From Bedellia somnulentella (lineage: Eukaryota; Arthropoda; Insecta; Lepidoptera; Bedelliidae): DNA of 64,000 nucleotides. The DNA is taken from the NCBI GenBank assembly GCA_963576735.1, contig OY755178.1:3596001-3660000 (forward strand), given 5' to 3'. The notes beneath the pieces were generated by a model that saw only the letters and a list, made by a program, of their open reading frames with translations, made no database searches and had not been told where the DNA came from. Each line of letters begins with the position of its first letter. Positions within the stretch are counted from its first letter, which is position 1. Below are positions 804 to 50,990 of the stretch, piece by piece. The translations under genes were made by a program, and so were the position numbers.

Positions 804-1295
804 TAATACATACATACATATTCTCACGCCGTTAGTGCCCATTGGGGTAGGCAGAGACTATCAAACGCCACTTTGTACGATCCTGGCAAACCTCTCTAGC
901 TTCGTTCACATCCATCAATCTTTTCATACATGCTCTTTTAATCCTTCTCTTACAATATCATCTTTTACACCACACCTATCACAAATCACATCATTCCTCA
1001 CACGATCACATAACCTTACATTACAAACTTCTCTGAGGGACCTCATCTCTACTGCATTCACTCTGCTTTCATGCTTCTTCTGCCAAACCCAACATTCGCT
1101 GCCATACATAAGCGTAGGAACAAGAACAGCATCATGCACAGCCACTCGGGCCTTTTCAGACACCAATTGACTAGACTTAAGACTATCCAGTGCTCCATTT
1201 ACCGCATTACCCTTCTTCACTCTTCTCTCGATATCTTCATCACACTTTTCATCCCTAGTAAACAAAATTCCCAAATATACAGACTCTTTAGATAA
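804..1295 (-). mobile_element. LINE-T fragment, reverse-transcriptase C-terminal region
   Basis: LINE-T is a working name for a non-LTR retrotransposon with a (TATG)n tail. The minus strand encodes a run at 1274..924 with DIERRVKKGNAVNGAL, VPTLMYGSECWVWQKK and ESRVNAVEMRSLR, typical of the part after the RT domain. About 75 residues are missing before the conserved end near [11 protein letters not shown], so the copy is internally deleted. The tail (CATA on plus) is at 804. Confidence 0.8.
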
Positions 1296-1352
1296 TAGTC
1301 TCTGCCTACCTCAATGGGAACTAATGGCGCGACAATATGTATGTATGTACAA
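1296..1352 (+). mobile_element. LINE-T 3' tail, opposite orientation
   Basis: AGTCTCTGCCTACCTCAATG followed by GGCGCGACAATATG and TATG repeats. It abuts the minus-strand LINE-T copy head to head. Confidence 0.7.
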
Positions 1353-1450
1353 GTGGAAGTTGATTGGACAAAAGTTTCTAAGATAAAGAATGGTTGTTGA
1401 TGTTTATCCAGTCACATCGCCCAGTGATAAATTTAAAAGCTCCACGACCT
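1352..1450 (-). repeat. Degraded SINE-A
   Basis: Diverged match to the SINE-A centre (GTGGAAGTTGATTGG, CACATCGCCCA, TTAAAAGCTCCA). Confidence 0.5.
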
Positions 1451-2030
1451 TTTGTCACCTACTACAACTCTAACGAGAAAAAACAAGGTTACTGTTCTAA
1501 ACTAACACGTTAGAGTTACCATTCCAGAAAAATAAAGTAATAACCAACAAAATAGATGTCCTATCCTGAAAATAAGAACGTATTAATTTTTTGATATCAC
1601 CCTAACTTATAGCATACCCTTGTAGTGCCCGCACGTGATTTGCGTTCTAATAGGATATGTATTCATGAGGGTAGGCTGCTGTGGACCTCTATGGGCATAG
1701 ATTTGGTAATAAACGGAAGATCTCCCACAAAAAAGTAATTTGAATTTGACCCCGCGACCTTTTTGTGATTCCACCGGGTAAGGTCCGCATAATTGTTTCG
1801 AAAAGTTATTTTACGTTAGTAAGCGTTTTGTTGCGTAATGGTTATTTCATTCTCATTAAATTTGAGTAAACTTGAACTGGAAGAGGCAGGAATAATCGAC
1901 ATTGAATAATGTAGTAGACTGGATACGTAAATTATCATTTTTATTACTACCTAATCATATTTCAGAGGTTTTGTGTAACTAAATGTATTGAACATATCAA
2001 ATATCAATATAAATTTTCACTACTTTTATG
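1451..2030. other. Unassigned AT-rich DNA
   Basis: I recognise neither an exon nor a repeat family here. Confidence 0.4.
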
Positions 2031-8188: not shown

Positions 8189-8486
8189 AATAAATAAAGA
8201 ATAAATAAAGTAAAGAAAAATTTTGACACAGGCGGGGATCGAACCCGCGACCTCAGGTAAACGCCCCGACGCTCTAAAAAGAGAAATAAAGGATATAAAA
8301 TAAATAAAGGATAGAAAAATTTCGCACTGGCAGCCAATTGACACGGTAGCTCAATTGGCAGAGCGTCGGGGCGTTTACCTGAGGTCGCGGGTTCGATCCC
8401 CGCCTGTGTCGAAATTTTTCTTTCCTTTATTTATTCTTTATTTATTAGTAATAATCCCCACATGAGGTTTTCATGAAAAAAAATAT
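8189..8486. repeat. Inverted SINE-C dimer inside one 17-bp target duplication
   Basis: SINE-C is a working name for a tRNA-headed SINE ending ATAATCCCCACATGAGG. The right half (8340..8486) is complete and on plus. The left half (8189..8275) is a 5'-truncated copy in reverse. The unit is flanked by TTAAACTTACCATTAAT at 8172..8188 and 8487..8503, absent as a pair in copy 2 of the duplication. Confidence 0.85.
8340..8410 (+). ncRNA. tRNA-like head of SINE-C (folds as a full cloverleaf)
   Basis: Acceptor GACACGG pairs with CTGTGTC; D stem GCTC/GAGC; anticodon stem TCGGG/CCTGA with loop GCGTTTA; T stem GCGGG/CCCGC. The anticodon would be GTT, but position 33 is C not T, and the unit lies within a SINE, so I do not call it a functional tRNA gene. 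A box TAGCTCAATTGG and B box GGTTCGATCCC could drive Pol III. Confidence 0.75.
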
Positions 8487-41472: not shown

Positions 41473-44042
41473 ACACTTAGCGGGCGCAAAGCACGTATGA
41501 CTAAAAAACCGCTTAAAGGTAGTGACGGTAGCCTCCTATGTACCTCAGACGAACAGTTGCAAAGATGGACTGAACACTTCACGAGCCTGCTAAAGCAAAC
41601 CCAGACGCCAGACTCTCATGAAACCAGCACTAGCTCACCAGTCACTGTATTAGACATTGCGACAGCACCTCCCTCATTTGATGAAACTTTATTAGCAGTG
41701 AAGTCTCTGAAACCAGGGAAAGCGCCAGGAGTCGACAATGTGCACGTGGATATGCTGAGAGCCGATGCTGCTACATCTGCTTCACTGCTGTATCCCCTTC
41801 TTACCCGCATTTGGGAGACTAATCTAGTTTGCAATAGAATCCAACAATCATGTAAACAAACCAAATTGTCACGATTACTCCGTAATCCCATACATTTGAC
41901 GATCAATTATGAACATAGTCTGATTTCAACGAACGCACCATTGTTTTCACATTATCTTCAACACGATTTAACTTGTATTTATAAGTTAAATTTGTTAAAA
42001 CATTTGCAACGTAAAAATTTCGAAGTATTTGACAAGCTGTCATCTTAGTTTTTTACTCATCGAACTCTATAAGTCATTGAAAAGTTAGTGTTGTTCGTAA
42101 TCTGAAGTTATCCTTTATTTTTAATTTAATAAATTATTTTAATATAATATTATTTGAATAAAATGAAAAAAAAATTTCAAGATCTTAATATAATTAACCA
42201 AAACGGATTGTATCCTAAGCCATAAAAATAATGGTTAGTTTTTAAAAATTGGCAGGTGGTTATTTTGTTAGAATTGTCATTCACAGTCATTCACTGTTCT
42301 GTGGATTCGCTGTGCATTAGTGTTTTCTGTTTCCGTTTTCTGTTTCCGATTTCTACGACTTTGCATTCTCATTTGGACTTTTGTTTTGCTCTACGATTTG
42401 GCTGGACATATTTTTCTTGGAACGACGACCTATGCAAGGCATCACGGACTTTGATATAGCATACGATTGGTATTTTTTAGTCAGTTTTATTTTAGTACCT
42501 ATCCTACCATGGGCCATAGTCTATGACTTAAACTTAAAATAATTAGAAAAATTAATTTAATTAAAATTAAATTAGAACACTATGACATCACTATGGGCAT
42601 AAACAATACGCTGTCAATGTCAGTCCGCCATATTTGTTTACATGATTGTTGGATTCTATTGCAAACGATTTTAGACAAGTTCCCGATGAATGGAAACAAG
42701 GCCTTCTGGTGAAAGTTCCTGGGAACGTGAAAGAAGGGTGATTTAACGCGATGTGATAACTGGCGCGGCATTACACTACTACCTTCCGCCGCAAAAGTTT
42801 TAGCGAAGATTCTGCTCAACCGCATCGCACCAGCAAGCAGTAGCTGAGACGCTGAGGGAAGAACAAGCCGGTTTCCGCTCCGGACGCTCCTGCACAGACC
42901 ACACTAACACCTTGCGCATACTGATCGAGCAGTGTGTCGAATGGCAGTCGGAACTACTGCTGGCATTCGTCGATTTCGAAAAAGCCTTCGACAACGTGAA
43001 CTGGGGCGCGTTGTGGTCCAGCCTTAGTCGCAGGGGCATCCCGCAGTGTATTATTGAGATAATCCGCGCCCTATACGAAGGTAGCACATGCCGGGTGATT
43101 CATGAAAAGGAGCTGGGAGCACCAATATGCATCTCTGCGGGCGTCAAGCAAGGATGCCTCTTATCGCCGCTTCTCTTCATTATTCTGTTGGACGACGTCA
43201 TGAGAGCGGTCACCCAAAAACCTCGAGGTGTGAAGTGGGGCGCTTCTGTCTTAGAAGACTTGGACTACGCGGACGACATTGTGTTAATCTCGCCAACTCT
43301 AGCCCATTTAGAAGCTAAACTTGAGAGCCTTAGAAAGCAAGCAGAAGTCATGGGCCTGCGAATTAATAAACGCAAAACCGTCGACATGCGGATAAATCCT
43401 TCAACGACAGAACCATTGAAGCTTCAAGATACCCCCCTAGAATCCGCTCGTAAGTTTGTTTACCTCGGTAGTGTTATTACGTGTCAAGGAGGTGCAGACG
43501 AGGATGTTGAAAGCAGGATACGGAAGGCAAACGCGGCCTTTGCCCAACTGAGACCTGTCTGGGAGTCAAATGTCCTTTCCCGTCGAGTAAAGATCTCCCT
43601 CTTCGAATCCGTGGTGAGATCCGTTCTGCTCTTTGGCTGTGAAACGTGGAGAGTGACAAAGGGGCTGACGAATAAGCTCCAAGTCTTCGTCAACAAGTCC
43701 CTGAGGTCAATCCTCCGCATTTACTGGCCAATGACAATCCGGAACGTGGACCTGTGGAACCAATGCCAGCAGACTCCAGTTGTGACTGACATCGCACTGA
43801 GAAAATGGAGGTGGATGGGGCACACATTTCGAAGAGGGACCACAAACGCCAGCATCGCATTCGGGTGGAAACTACCGGACGGCAAGCGAGCCCGCGGCCG
43901 TCCCGTACACACTTGGCGCCGGAGCGTGGAGAGCGAGCTGCGAGCGGCGGGACTGAGTTGGAGTGCGGCCAGGGAAGTCGCAGCAGACAGGAAGGCGTGG
44001 CGGGAGCTTGTGCAGGCCCTGTGCACCAGTGGGGTGCCATAG
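41473..44042 (+). pseudogene. Reverse transcriptase of RTE-like LINE, broken
   Basis: First part 41473..41826 ends at LLTRIWETN in the RT fingers (KSLKPGKAPGVDNVH near 41710). After the inserted element it resumes at QVPDEWKQGLLVKVP with frame breaks at about 42735..42840. It is then open from about 42833: AGFRSGRSCTDH, FVDFEKAFDNVNW (motif A), GVKQGCLLSPLLF (motif B), YADDIVLIS (catalytic YADD), LFGCETWR, RARGRPVHTWRR, and TAG at 44040. The endonuclease is missing. Broken by insertion and frameshifts. Confidence 0.87.
41827..42667. mobile_element. 841-bp DNA element with perfect 34-bp terminal inverted repeats
   Basis: Ends GTTTGCAATAGAATCCAACA... (41827..41860) and the exact complement at 42634..42667. 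No transposase. The target duplication is not clear (AGAC-like bases on both sides). Superfamily unassigned. Confidence 0.85.
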
Positions 44043-44250
44043 GACGACAACAACAGCCACTTTTGGAAGTTAAGTGGGGAAAAGATTGGTAAAAATAAAG
44101 GTTTTTGGTGATGGGTCTGCTACCGCATCGCCCGAAAATCCAATAAACAGCTCCAATACCCTTAGTCGCCTCTTACGACACCCGTGCGTAGAAAGGGGTA
44201 GTGACATTCTAAGCCTGCACTACTGAAGATCTGAGTTATGTATAATTTAG

Positions 44251-44258
44251 ATAATACC
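44251..44258. repeat. 8-bp direct repeat, left flank of composite TIR-E unit
   Basis: ATAATACC, repeated at 50114..50121 just outside the right end of the second TIR-E copy. Confidence 0.75.
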
Positions 44259-44689
44259 CACAGATCTGTATTTGAATAGATAACACAATTGTCATTTCTT
44301 GTATAGAAACCAAGCGTGCCATTATTTTTTGACCTACCGTGACGTCACACGAGCAATTTAGTGATGGGAACTTTCTGTGCGCGCGTAAACGATTCAATCG
44401 ATTACATTCGAGTGCATCGACAGACGAATGATAAATCGACAGATGAATGATAAATCTAGAATTATACCTGTTTTTAATGTTTCTATTTTCTCATGGTCTC
44501 ATGTTTATTCTGGACAACTCTTCCTACAATATTTTCGTCCACCATTACTTCTTCTAGGAGAACAACGATCTAAATCAGTGAGTAAGTGAGTAGTACAGTA
44601 GCCTTTATTATAATAATAACTTTTCGTTATTGATAACCTACCTACCTAATTAACTAGTTTTAATAATTTGTTCTCGGGTAAGATACAAA

Positions 44690-44845
44690 ATGAATAAAAA
44701 ACCACGAGATGATATTTTATCTACAAAAAAGGAAGCTAGTTGAAGGCGCTATGACGAAATATAATCCAACCCAGAACTAAGTCGGCTTGAAAAAAAACCA
44801 AATATAATTACTTGTAGAGAAAGAAAAATAATCACGTAGTTTTTT
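44690..44845 (+). pseudogene. Decayed ORF start in TIR-E copy 1
   Basis: ATG then NKKPRDDILSTKKEAS, stop, RRYDEI, stop, SNPELSRLEKK. The matching DNA in copy 2 (48304 on) reads REEILSTKRKASRRRYDKI with different lesions, so both derive from a coding ancestor with RRRY...NPEL. Function unknown; possibly the start of a transposon protein. Confidence 0.45.
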
Positions 44846-44957
44846 TCCGCTGTCTGTTTATCTACAGACTGTATCTCATAAACAGTGATAGCTAGAAAGC
44901 TGAAATTTTCACAAATAATGTATTTCTGTTGCCGCTATGACAACAAATACCAAAAAT

Positions 44958-44959
<2 letters not shown>

Positions 44960-45026
<67 letters not shown>
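44960..45026. repeat. (AT)n microsatellite
   Basis: A pure AT dinucleotide run of about 66 bp, only in TIR-E copy 1. Confidence 0.95.
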
Positions 45027-45029
<3 letters not shown>

Positions 45030-45279
45030 GGGGGTCCTCATTAAATTAAACGTGATTTTTTCCGTATTATTTTGCTCAATATCAAATTAGCCATAAGCAG
45101 ACACTTTAATTTTTTTACAGAATGTTTACTTGTATATCACCTTTCAAAAGAAATAATTAAATACTAGTAAAGTAAACATCAAAGGGTGGCTCCCATACAA
45201 AAACGTAATTTTATATTATAGATGATAGAACGGAACCCTTCATTTGTTCTTTACTGGAAATAAAAAAGAACATATGTAG

Positions 45280-45700
45280 GTAGAATTATCAGAAGCAGTA
45301 ACAAAAATATATTTTCTCATTTGCGTAAAGGCAGCACCTTTACTAAAGTTTGTAAACCAGTTAAAATCTATGAAAATAATTCAGGAGCTGTAGCTATTTC
45401 TAAGTATGGCAACTTTACAAAGAATTCTAAGCACATTGAAGTTCACTATCAAGTTAAGCAAGGAAGTAATAAAAATAGAGTCAGAAAATAAAATTGCAGA
45501 TATATTTACAAAAGCTTTAGAAAATTTTAATTTCACTAAATTTAGAAAAAAGTTGAATTCAAAGGAGTAAAGTTCCCTAATTGATAATTAATTATAATTA
45601 CTGTAGTACTTAGGAAGCCTTTCTTATTGTCATTGTTTTACAATATGGAGGCGTGTTGGTGTATATGTACATTTATATTGGCAATACTGAGTAAATAAAG
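45280..45700 (+). pseudogene. Copia-type RNase H remnant, polypurine tract and LTR start in TIR-E copy 1
   Basis: Fragments VKIYENNSGAVAISKYGNFT, KNSKHIEVHY and ENKIADIFTKAL match the end of Copia-type Pol (RNase H). A polypurine tract ATGGAGGCG is followed by TGTTGG at 45654, the usual start of a Copia LTR. Confidence 0.75.
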
Positions 45701-46439
45701 GAAATAAAAAAGGCTGACACATACCACGTTTTAGGAAATGTAGCCTAGATAAAAACGTGTAACTAAAATTAAACTGATCTTTTATTAAATAAACACAAAG
45801 TTAACACAAGAGTGTTCCAATTAATAATTCAACAGTAACATTGTAGTAATAAAAATATTTTGGATACAGGGAACACCTATCGCAAATATTATCATTCCTC
45901 TGGTCCCAAAATCGATTAGAATTATAATCGAATACAACTAACTGTACAAGTACAACACAATTTGCTTAAAATGACAGAAACATGACAATAGCCACCGTAC
46001 CGCGAAGCTGATTGACAAGTGAAAATATCGTTAATTTTAATGTTCATTGCGTGTTTTAATAGACAAGCCACACGAGAGCTTTGTATCAAAAAGCGGCAAT
46101 GTATTATAAATTATGCGATACACACTCGGTGAAATGTTTTTCAGTGTAAAACTATAATGAACATGAAATAATTGTTTTTGGAATAAAAACCACATTATTT
46201 TATAATAAAGTGACCTAGCGATGAAAGGAAATCTTTCCATTAACTCATCCCGCTTTATTTGGATAGTTTTTGCAACTCAATACGGCTCAATAAGGCATTT
46301 TTTATATTTGGCTTGATATCCGTCACCGAGAACATTCGTGCGCGGACTCAATCAAATGGCGCTAAACTAAGATAATTTCACTCAGTTTTTACACGCGAAG
46401 TACATGCACTTGCGTCATCTATTCAAATACAGATCTATG

Positions 46440-47204
46440 GCCAGAACCATAATGTGTCACACCACGGACTGTCTTATAAAATTATAATGTGTGACTATAT
46501 ACTATACGAGGTCGTATATATTACTAGATAAAAATATCGATATAACACACATACACAATATCTTGCATAATACATATATACACAAATTGATATCATATAT
46601 ATTACACTCTCTACGGGATAATCATATTACATTTTATTATTATATTATGCCCGAAACCAATGAATAATAAACACATTTTAAATAAACCAAAACATTCCAA
46701 ATATTCAAAACTTACATAAAATATAGCAAGAGATACATAAAATTACTTACAAAAAAGTGTGCTGGATGGAAGGGAAGGGGTTCTTCTGCAGATGATTAAC
46801 TTATGAACATGATTTACTTTTTTATTGTAGTAGGTATTACAAGAAGAAAAAAATTCGGCAATTATGAATGAAAAGTGAAATCTAGCAAATATCTACAACG
46901 CCGGCAATAGCCAATTCATTCATAAAAAAATAACACTTTTATGCAAAATTTCAGGTTTATTTCGGACATCACATTATGGATCTTGAATTTTTAGGCTGCA
47001 ATTGATTTGATTGGCTCGTATAGACTCTGTCTTTAAGACAGTTTGACTAAAAATAATTCAGTAGTATTAAATCACACAATCTAGCTGGCCATTTTACAGC
47101 AAAATTTTGTGATATTATGCGATTAGCAAATATGGTTTGAGATATTGGATTGAATAATTCGTTACTTTGCGGAAATCCATAGCAAAACTAATATTAATAA
47201 GTTT
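46440..47204. other. Unassigned AT-rich DNA between the TIR-E copies
   Basis: AT-rich, no exon seen. It belongs to the segment enclosed by the two TIR-E copies. Confidence 0.4.
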
Positions 47205-47861
47205 CTTCGCTGAATTCTCCCGAAGGCGGCAGGGTATGATAGGATTACTATCGAAATGCTGAGGGCTAGTAAAGGGTTGGTGGCTTCTTGGTTGTACTTC
47301 CTTTTCCAAAAATGCTGGTCAAGTGGCAAAGTTCCAAGAGACTGGTGCAAGACGATGATTGTGCCTCTATATAAAGGAAAAGGGTCACACCAAGAGGCTA
47401 AAAACTACCGCGGCATCAGCTTACTCAGCATTGCTGGTAAATTGTATGCAAAGATACTGATTGAAAGAGTGATGAATGAAACTGATGAGTAAATATGGGA
47501 TGTGCAATCGGGATTTAGGAAAGGAATGCGATGTATGGATGAAATCTTCTCTCTAAGGAGCATCACCGAAAAATTCTCAGCTAAGAACCAAAAGGTGTAT
47601 TACTCCTTCATTGATTTAGAGAAGTCGTATGATAGGGTGGTAAGAAAGTGTTTATGGGAAATGTTATCCAAGTTCGGTTTGGGGAGTCAACTTATACGTG
47701 CATTAGTATCACTCTATGAAGATTCTAGTGCATGTGTAAGAGTAATCGGGGAAAACACTGACTGGTTCGGAATCTCTAGGGGTGTCCGACAGGGATGTGT
47801 AGCTTCTCCGTGGCTCTTCAATTTGTTCATGGATGACAGAATTGACAGAGTGATTATGGAC
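47205..47861 (+). pseudogene. LINE-T reverse transcriptase, internal fragment
   Basis: The only copy here with the LINE-T RT core. WLYFLFQKCWSSGKVPRDW, PLYKGKGSHQEAKNYRGISL, a TAA stop at 47490, QSGFRKGMRCMDEIFSLRS, FIDLEKSYDRVV (motif A) and GVRQGCVASPWLFNLF (motif B). It stops abruptly at the TIR-E copy 2 end, before the YADD motif. Confidence 0.85.
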
Positions 47862-48506
47862 CACAGATCTGTATTTGAATAGATAACGCAAGTGTCAATT
47901 CTTGTATAGAAACCAAGCGTGCCATTATTTTTCCACCTACTGTGACGTCACATGAGCAATTTAGTGATGGGAACTCCCCGTCAGCACGTAAACGATTCAA
48001 TCGATTATATTCGAGTGCATCGACAGACGAATGATAAATTGACAGAAGAATGATAAATCTAGAATTATACCTGTTTTTAATAACGCTATTTTCTCATGGT
48101 CTCATTTTTATTCTGAGCAACTCTTCCTACATTATTTTCCTCCACCACCACATCTTCTCGGAGAACAACGATCTAAATCAGTGAGTTAATGAGTCAGTTA
48201 GTCAGTGAGTAGTTCAGTAGCCTTTATTATTATAATAACTTGTCCTTATTGATAACCTACCTAATTAACTAGTTTTAATAATTTGTTCTCGGAAAGTTAC
48301 AAAATGATTTAAAAAAAAACCCGAGAAGAAATTTTATCTACAAAAAGGAAAGCCAGTAGAAGGCGCTATGACAAAATATAATACAACCCAGAACTAATTC
48401 GGATTTGAAAAAAAAAACAAATAAAATAGCTTGTAGAGAAGGAAAAATTATCAAGTATTTTTTTTTTCGTTGTCTGTTTTTCTCCAGGCTGTATCTCATA
48501 AACAGT

Positions 48507-48636
48507 AAACGTTCACGTCGTTTATCCCCGAAGGGGTTGGCAGAGGTACCAATACTTCTGAACTCACATGGCAGCGCCATCTAGTGTCCAGAGAAGGTAC
48601 CCACACATACAAGTAAAAATAGGATTCACACACACA
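48507..48636 (-). repeat. Short SINE-B insertion in TIR-E copy 2, 11-bp target duplication
   Basis: Flanked by TCATAAACAGT at 48496..48506 and 48637..48647. Copy 1 has the empty site. The body carries GCGCCATCTAGTGT. Confidence 0.9.
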
Positions 48637-48982
48637 TCATAAACAGTGATAACTAGAAAGCTGAAATTTTCACAAATAACGTATTTCTGTTGCCACTATA
48701 ACAACAAATACAAGTAAAAAAAGGATTTTAAGGGGGGCCCCTTACAATAAACGTGTTTTTTCCGTATTTGTTTACTCGATATTAAAACGTTAATAAGTAG
48801 ATACTTAAAATTTTCACAGTATATTTACTTGTATATCACCTTTCAAAATAAATAATTAAATAACAGTAAAGTAAATATCAAAGGGGCTCCCATACAAAAA
48901 CGTTATTTTCTATTATAGATGAAAGTACGGAACTCTTCGTTTGTTCAATATTGGAAATAAAAAAAAAAACAAAGTAGTGTAA

Positions 48983-49340
48983 CAAACTCTTCAACATTTG
49001 CTGAATATGTAGAATTATCAGAAGCAGTAGCAGAATTAAATTTTCTCATTTGTGTAATGAATGATGTCTTTACTAAGGTTTGTAAACCAGTTAAAATCTA
49101 TGAAGATGATTCAGCAGCTGTAGCTATTTCTAAGTATGGAAACTTTACAAAGAATTCTAAGCATATTGAAGTTCACTATCATTTTGTAAATTAAAATGTT
49201 TAGCAGGGAAGTATACAAAATAGAGTCAGAAAATTAAATTGCAGATAACTAAATTTAAAGGAGTATAGTTCCCTAATTGATTATAATTACTGTAGTACTT
49301 AAGAAGCTTTGAACTTATTTAGGGAGGCGTGTTCGTGTAT
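48983..49340 (+). pseudogene. Copia-type RNase H remnant in TIR-E copy 2
   Basis: NSSTFAEYVELSEAVAELNF and VKIYEDDSAAVAISKYGNFT, better preserved at its 5' side than copy 1. GGGAGGCG then TGTTCG at 49330 marks the LTR start. Confidence 0.75.
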
Positions 49341-50113
49341 ATATGTACATTTATATTGGCAACACGGAGTGAAGGAAGGAAGTAAATAAAGACTGACACA
49401 TACCACACGTTAAGAAATGTAGCTTAGAGAAAAACTTGTAACTAAAATTAAACTGTTCTTTTATTAAATAAAAACAAAGTTAAAACAAGAGTATTCCAAT
49501 TAATTATTTAACAGAAACATTGTAGTAATAAAAATATTTTAGATACATGGAACATCCATCGCGAATATTATCATTTCTCTGTTCCCAAAATCGATTAGAA
49601 TTAGAATTGAATACAACTATCTGTGTAGGTACAACACATTTTGCTTAAAATGACAGAAATATGACAATAGCTACCGTACCATGTAGCTGATTGACAGGTG
49701 AAAATATCGTTCATTTTGATGTTCATTGCGTGTTTTAATAGACAAGCAATACTAGATAGCTTTGTAACTAAAAGCGGCAATGTATTATAAATGAAGCGAT
49801 ACACACTCGTTTTTTTCAGTGTAAAACCACAACGAACACGAAATAATTGATTTTGCAATAAAAACCACATAATCTAATAATAAAGTGACCTACCGATGAA
49901 AGTAAATCTTTCTATTAATTAGTCCCGCTTTATTTAGATAGTTTTTGCAACTCAATACGGCACAATTAGGCATTTTTATATTTAGCTTGACATCTGTCAC
50001 CGAGAACGTTCGAGCACGGACTCAATCAAATGGCGATAAACTAAGATAATTTTACTCAGTTTTTACACGCGAAGTACATGCACTTGCGGCATCTATTCAA
50101 ATACATGTCTGTG

Positions 50114-50121
50114 ATAATACC
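50114..50121. repeat. 8-bp direct repeat, right flank of composite TIR-E unit
   Basis: ATAATACC, identical to 44251..44258. Confidence 0.75.
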
Positions 50122-50360: not shown

Positions 50361-50671
50361 GTGATGAGTTTAGATGGTGCTTCTTAGTGCTGGATGTTAT
50401 TTATACAGGGTGGCTCATTCAAATCGGTCAGTATGGGAAAGTCTGAAACTATAAGATTTTGATAACAAGAAAAACTGCATTCATACATCTGAAAAAAAAC
50501 TGTACCCAGCTCGGGAATGGAACCCGGTTGTTTTGAAAAAATAAACTTACACTTATTTTATTTTGATATCGAATGTCTTAAGCTGTAAATATCTCCATAA
50601 AACATGATGTCTAAAATGAATAACATGCATTGTTTTGACATACTTTAATATCTCAAAGTTTATATGTGTTG

Positions 50672-50990
50672 GCAGAGGTACCAATACTTCTGAACTCACA
50701 TGGCGGCGCCATCTAGTGTCCAGAGAAGGTACCCACGTTAGTGTACTCACGTGATAGGGGGCAGGCCTATCGCCGTTTTGTACGAATACACTGTCACATG
50801 ACTAAGTACAACTCAGCCATGTGGGTTTCCTCACGATGTTTTCTCTCACCGTTAACAACCATGATAAATTTAACCACACATATGACTTTAGAAAAGACAA
50901 ATTGGTGTAGGCCCGACCCAGGATTGGAACTCACGCCCTTTTGTTTTCGGGCGGGTGTTCTACCCACTGGACTATCATGTTGTTTTTTCA
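50672..50990 (-). repeat. SINE-B copy, short-type 3' end fused to long-type body
   Basis: AACTCACATGGCGGCGCCAT (short subtype) joined at CCCACGTTAGTG to the long-subtype body, then the tRNA head. Contains GCGCCATCTAGTGT at 50706..50719. Confidence 0.85.

What the first reader, a model, noticed from the sequence alone, without database searches (positions are those of the whole stretch)
44251..50121. Two TIR-E copies and the DNA between them share a single outer 8-bp direct repeat
Seen: ATAATACC flanks the left end of copy 1 and the right end of copy 2. The inner flanks do not match each other or the outer repeat. The left inner flank of copy 2 is a LINE-T reverse transcriptase that does not continue beyond copy 2. 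Inference: the whole 5.9-kb unit moved as a composite transposon, or a circle carrying one TIR-E plus 1.4 kb recombined into a resident TIR-E.
Basis: partly seen in the sequence, partly recalled or inferred. Interest (0 to 1): 0.75.

Follow-up and report, generated by a model that had tools for sequence, protein, structure and literature searches.

The report
Two transposons that jumped as one
Two copies of a DNA transposon and the 1.4 kb between them share one outer target-site repeat, so they most likely jumped together as one unit, an event well studied in maize and here seen as a probable fossil in what looks like moth or butterfly DNA.

Summary
Two complete copies of a TIR element (44259-46439 and 47862-50113, direct orientation, 33-bp inverted ends) flank 1422 bp. 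ATAATACC lies exactly outside the left end of copy 1 and the right end of copy 2. The inner 8-mers, GCCAGAAC and TTATGGAC, match each other and the outer repeat at only 3 of 8 bases. A random pair of nearby 8-mers matches exactly at about 4e-5. The LINE reverse transcriptase in the middle is cut at copy 2 and was not found to resume. Best reading: one transposition used the outer ends of two linked elements, making one 8-bp duplication (macrotransposition, as described for maize Ac/Ds). The copies are old relative to each other (about 10% mismatch, no change point). Two rivals give the same anatomy and cannot be excluded from one locus: a re-replication 'composite insertion', and recombination of an element-plus-1.4-kb circle (or ectopic gap repair) into a resident element. 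Empty site, donor and other copies could not be examined: the genome search did not complete (10 tries), and three exact-pattern scans of viral and bacterial contigs gave no copy. Superfamily undecided (P-like or hAT-like). New member of a known kind, modest interest.

The parts
44251..44258 (.). left copy of the outer 8-bp direct repeat ATAATACC
44259..46439 (+). TIR-E copy 1, 2181 bp, complete ends CACAG...CTATG; (TA)n expansion at about 44958-45027
44259..44291 (+). left terminal inverted repeat of copy 1 (33 bp)
46407..46439 (-). right terminal inverted repeat of copy 1; third base from the end changed (CATAG)
46440..47861 (.). middle segment, 1422 bp, no other match in the window
   Evidence: blastn E 1e-4, only the self match
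47217..47861 (+). LINE reverse transcriptase fragment with one in-frame stop; similarity starts abruptly at about 47217 and the frame is cut by copy 2
   Evidence: second ORF piece RVT_1 E 3.9e-16, profile 39-139/205, first piece no Pfam family; relatives incl. Parnassius and Eumeta; tblastn
47862..50113 (+). TIR-E copy 2, 2252 bp, complete ends CACAG...CTGTG
47862..47894 (+). left terminal inverted repeat of copy 2
50081..50113 (-). right terminal inverted repeat of copy 2
48507..48636 (.). insertion in copy 2 only, retroposon-like, ending in (CA)n and flanked by 11-bp TCATAAACAGT (48496-48506 and 48637-48647); parts recur elsewhere in the window
48961..49194 (+). remnant that reads like a Copia-type RNase H, inside copy 2 (counterpart in copy 1 at 45264-45491); the name is recalled from its motifs
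   Evidence: ORFs; 39 related proteins, E down to 4e-21, none with a Pfam domain or a telling name (4 of 39 read); no Pfam family
50114..50121 (.). right copy of the outer 8-bp direct repeat ATAATACC

Best explanation
Macrotransposition. At a donor site two TIR-E elements lay 1.4 kb apart in the same orientation, copy 2 having landed in a LINE reverse transcriptase. A transposase supplied by an unseen autonomous relative paired the left end of copy 1 with the right end of copy 2, cut there, and inserted the whole 5855-bp piece at ATAATACC, making one 8-bp duplication at the outer ends. Shown: anatomy, orientation, single outer repeat, unmatched inner flanks, truncated LINE. Inferred: the donor site, the transposase, and that the move was a single step.
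For: The outer 8-mers match 8/8 exactly at the element boundaries while the other five flank pairs match 3/8; chance about 3-4e-5. Both copies are complete at both ends and in direct orientation, the arrangement needed. The LINE is interrupted at copy 2 and not found to resume, as expected if copy 2's right-hand donor flank was left behind. The copies differ at about 10% of aligned bases, evenly, as expected of two separate older insertions; the outer repeat shows no change. Macrotransposons of Ac with 8-bp duplications are described in maize (passages of PMC9910405 and PMC3260210), and macrotransposition was proposed for mosquito P elements (passage of PMC1562414).
Against: No donor locus, empty site or second TIR-E pair was seen; no transposase is known for the family. 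The right end of copy 2, which this model uses, differs from the left ends at two of its first ten bases, though its outermost six bases are intact. The same anatomy is predicted by two rivals.
Confidence: 0.6

Rival explanations
1. Homologous recombination into a resident element. One TIR-E sat at ATAATACC; a circle carrying a second TIR-E plus 1.4 kb, or ectopic repair of an excision gap copied from an E-middle-E locus, recombined within it and left two chimeric copies with the resident's duplication on the outside.
For: Gives the same outer repeat and unmatched inner flanks. Ectopic repair templates are mentioned for P elements (passage of PMC1562414).
Against: Needs a resident copy plus a circle or an E-middle-E donor, so more steps. 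No change point in divergence, although this test has no power to exclude it. The TIR comparison used for Galileo (passage of PMC2775673) is uninformative here: within copies 29/33 and 29/33, between copies 31/33 (left) and 29/33 (right).
Confidence: 0.18
2. Re-replication composite insertion. The ends that face each other between two linked TIR-Es transposed during DNA replication; the elements and their outer flanks were re-replicated, and the two broken flanks were joined. The middle is then flank A plus flank B, not one contiguous donor piece. That this gives two copies in direct orientation is my inference from the published model.
For: Described in maize: transposon termini flanking re-replicated, joined flanks, with 8-bp duplications (abstract and passages of PMC4270019). 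LINE similarity in the middle starts abruptly at about 47217, while several relatives have upstream residues that do not align; this could be such a join.
Against: An abrupt start is also the normal 5' truncation of a LINE. The 5-kb flanks on either side have no second copy in the window: the only non-self match of 300 bp or more is a dispersed repeat (50668-50977, 85%). This is weak, since such duplications can be far larger than the window, and composite insertions without one are also described.
Confidence: 0.12
3. Two independent insertions whose inner target repeats decayed or were lost by rearrangement, with the outer match a coincidence.
For: Copies are about 10% diverged, so some decay of old repeats is expected.
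Against: Exact 8/8 outer match has chance about 3-4e-5 per pair. Each copy's own flanks match at only 3/8, far below what about 10% divergence would leave.
Confidence: 0.03

Closest known systems
Maize Ac/Ds macrotransposons (Huang and Dooner 2008, seen only as cited by others; passages of PMC3260210 and PMC9910405)
   Same: Two linked elements, outer ends used, intervening DNA carried, 8-bp duplication outside
   Different: Maize cases were caught in genetic stocks with known Ac transposase and known progenitors; here only the product is seen, in an insect-like genome, from an unclassified element without a recognised transposase
Ac composite insertions by re-replication (PMC4270019, abstract and passages)
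   Same: Transposon ends at both borders, 8-bp duplication outside, genomic DNA inside
   Different: The middle is two joined flanks; such a join is neither shown nor excluded here
P-element MITEs of Anopheles gambiae (PMC1562414, passages)
   Same: 8-bp duplication, inverted ends of about 30 bp, non-autonomous, macrotransposition proposed as a source of AgaP2-P12MITE
   Different: No P transposase was found and the ends were not compared with P end sequences; the mosquito composite is a small MITE, not two full copies
Bacterial composite transposons such as Tn10 (recalled)
   Same: Two element copies moving the DNA between them as one unit with one target duplication
   Different: There the elements encode the transposase and carry a selected cargo; here no transposase is recognised and the cargo is a broken LINE

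Membership tests
macrotransposon (Ac/Ds type) | two linked complete elements in direct orientation | tested here: met
macrotransposon (Ac/Ds type) | single target duplication at the outer ends, none at the inner ends | tested here: met
   outer 8/8; each of the five pairs involving an inner flank 3/8
macrotransposon (Ac/Ds type) | empty site and donor locus, or observed mobilisation | not testable with these tools
   The genome search unanswered in 10 of 10 tries
re-replication composite insertion | middle made of two non-contiguous flanks joined end to end | tested here: inconclusive
   LINE similarity starts abruptly at about 47217; no relative of 46440-47216 to compare
hAT superfamily | 8-bp target duplication | tested here: met
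   from this unit only
hAT superfamily | ends of the CAGNG kind (recalled; compare the four 8-bp silkworm families, called Pegasus-like in the paper, that begin CAAGGG or CAGTGG) | tested here: not met
   ends are CACAG (3 of 4) and CATAG (1 of 4)
P superfamily | 8-bp duplication and inverted ends of 27-31 bp, as in Anopheles P | tested here: inconclusive
   8 bp and 33 bp with 4 mismatches within each copy; close, but ends were not compared with any P sequence
P or hAT superfamily | related transposase gene | tested here: inconclusive
   8 ORFs of 70-90 aa in the copies: no transposase family in Pfam; the autonomous relative could not be sought in the genome

The most novel reading that the evidence does not exclude
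E-middle-E is itself an established, repeatedly mobile composite transposon of an insect genome: a multi-copy family whose outer ends move two full elements plus cargo as bacterial composite transposons do.
Probability: 0.07. Interest if true: 0.6.

Novelty: new member of a known kind. Interest (0 to 1): 0.33.

Why it matters
If confirmed, it is a natural footprint of macrotransposition outside maize genetic stocks, probably in Lepidoptera. It would show that a non-autonomous element can carry unrelated DNA as a unit, one route for segmental duplication and for making new elements. The signature used here (one outer duplication, mismatched inner flanks) could be scanned for genome-wide to measure how often this happens in animals. 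No paper in the library held both 'macrotranspos' and 'Lepidoptera' (0 papers), but only open-licence papers are held.

Tried and rejected
Chance match of the outer 8-mers: rejected. An earlier global alignment gave 85.4% identity; it misaligned the region of copy 2's nested insert and copy 1's (TA)n, so the local-alignment figure (89.7%, 2013 columns, (TA)n columns dropped) is used. Further TIR-E copies: no further match to the end sequence in the window; no exact match to two patterns in viral contigs; 34 matches of a 17-mer in bacterial and archaeal genome contigs are chance-like: neither copy nor the middle has any similarity to the 34 fetched stretches. These collections are not insect genomes. 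LINE relatives in viral contigs: 14 pattern matches, none confirmed. TIR sequence in papers: 0 papers. A metazoan duplication paper (PMC8277862) held none of the six terms sought (only that and its listing were seen). Transposase in the copies: 8 ORFs scanned; the only family listed was Rad10 for 44239-44490 (18.5 bits, cut-off 28.1), taken as chance.

Full report
Observation. The two TIR-E copies lie at 44259-46439 and 47862-50113, in the same orientation, each with complete inverted ends. The 23-bp end sequence occurs four times in the window with up to 3 mismatches, at exactly these four ends, and not once in 100 shuffles. ATAATACC abuts the outer left and outer right ends. Of the six possible pairs among the four 8-base flanks, the outer pair matches 8/8 and the other five 3/8. 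The chance of an exact match at fixed positions is 2.8e-5 from composition and 17 of 400,000 random local pairs. The finding is real.

Age and structure. By local alignment the copies differ at 208 of 2013 columns (10.3%; columns in copy 1's (TA)n tract dropped), evenly along their length (chi-square p 0.41; no change point, permutation p 0.31). Copy 2 has a private retroposon-like insertion with an 11-bp duplication. Both copies carry the same remnant that reads like a Copia-type RNase H (ORFs; 39 relatives, none with a Pfam domain or a telling name, 4 of them read; the Copia name is recalled), so this piece was in the element before the two copies parted. Eight ORFs of 70-90 aa in the copies gave no transposase family in Pfam (one Rad10 hit below its cut-off), so the family is taken as non-autonomous.

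The middle. The 1422 bp between the copies match nothing else in the window. Its right part is a LINE reverse transcriptase whose similarity begins abruptly at about 47217, has one in-frame stop, and is traceable to 47837, 24 bp short of copy 2, with the frame running on into copy 2. The second ORF piece matches RVT_1 positions 39-139 of 205; the first piece matches no Pfam family but has 21 protein relatives. Five of the seven relatives of the second piece (P0002-P0006) read on past the cut. tblastn with three of them (P0002, P0004, P0005) found no continuation to the right of copy 2. That is inference; the organism was not identified.

Mechanism. A single insertion event using the left end of copy 1 and the right end of copy 2 explains the one outer duplication, the unmatched inner flanks and the truncated LINE in one step. 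This is macrotransposition, described for maize Ac/Ds (passages of PMC9910405; PMC3260210; the primary 2008 paper is not held) and proposed for mosquito P elements (passage of PMC1562414). Copy 1's right end has a changed third base (CATAG), which might have weakened it and favoured use of copy 2's right end; this is speculation, since the change could be later and copy 2's right end has two changes of its own further in.

Rivals. Re-replication composite insertions in maize have the same outer anatomy (abstract and passages of PMC4270019); there the middle is two joined flanks. The abrupt LINE start is compatible with such a join or with ordinary 5' truncation. The 5-kb flanks show no second copy in the window apart from one dispersed repeat, a weak argument against an accompanying duplication. 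Recombination of a circle, or ectopic gap repair, into a resident element also fits. Uniform divergence does not exclude it, and the 33-bp ends are too short for the chimera test used on Galileo (passage of PMC2775673; counts). These need donor, empty site or further copies, which I could not reach: the genome search did not complete in 10 of 10 tries, and exact-pattern scans of viral and prokaryote contigs gave no copies.

Membership. The 8-bp duplication fits hAT and P. The ends CACAG/CATAG do not fit the CAGNG pattern of hAT (recalled; the four silkworm 8-bp families begin CAAGGG or CAGTGG). The 33-bp length is close to the 27-31 bp of Anopheles P elements. Without a transposase the superfamily stays open.

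Verdict. A well-supported footprint of a known kind of event, in a probable lepidopteran genome; the exact route is about 60% macrotransposition. Interest is modest.

Noticed in passing
42804-44042 (+): A 412-aa open LINE reverse transcriptase fragment (RVT_1 34-203/205 and DUF6451) lies just left of the unit; it is a different LINE from the one in the middle segment (28-33% identity to that one's relatives).
   Followed up: partly
1158-1454 (-): A decayed downstream piece resembling the LINE of the middle segment (51% identity to P0005 over 51 aa), about 46 kb away; it does not abut the cut end.
   Followed up: partly
44054-44223 and elsewhere: A roughly 170-bp dispersed repeat; 17 further matches of 150 bp or more in both orientations at 77-91% identity. 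The copy here ends 27 bp left of the outer repeat.
   Followed up: no
48507-48636 and 50668-50736: The retroposon-like insert of copy 2 shares 69 bp at 99% with a repeat about 550 bp right of the unit, which suggests that this repeat family moved fairly recently.
   Followed up: partly
45264-45710 and 48961-49400: TIR-E carries what reads like the 3' end of a Copia pol and, by eye only, a purine-rich tract and the start of an LTR: a DNA transposon that captured or was invaded by a Copia-like element before it multiplied.
   Followed up: partly
8339-8412 (+): ARAGORN reports a tRNA-Asn (gtt), the only tRNA called in the window (run with the bacterial code).
   Followed up: no
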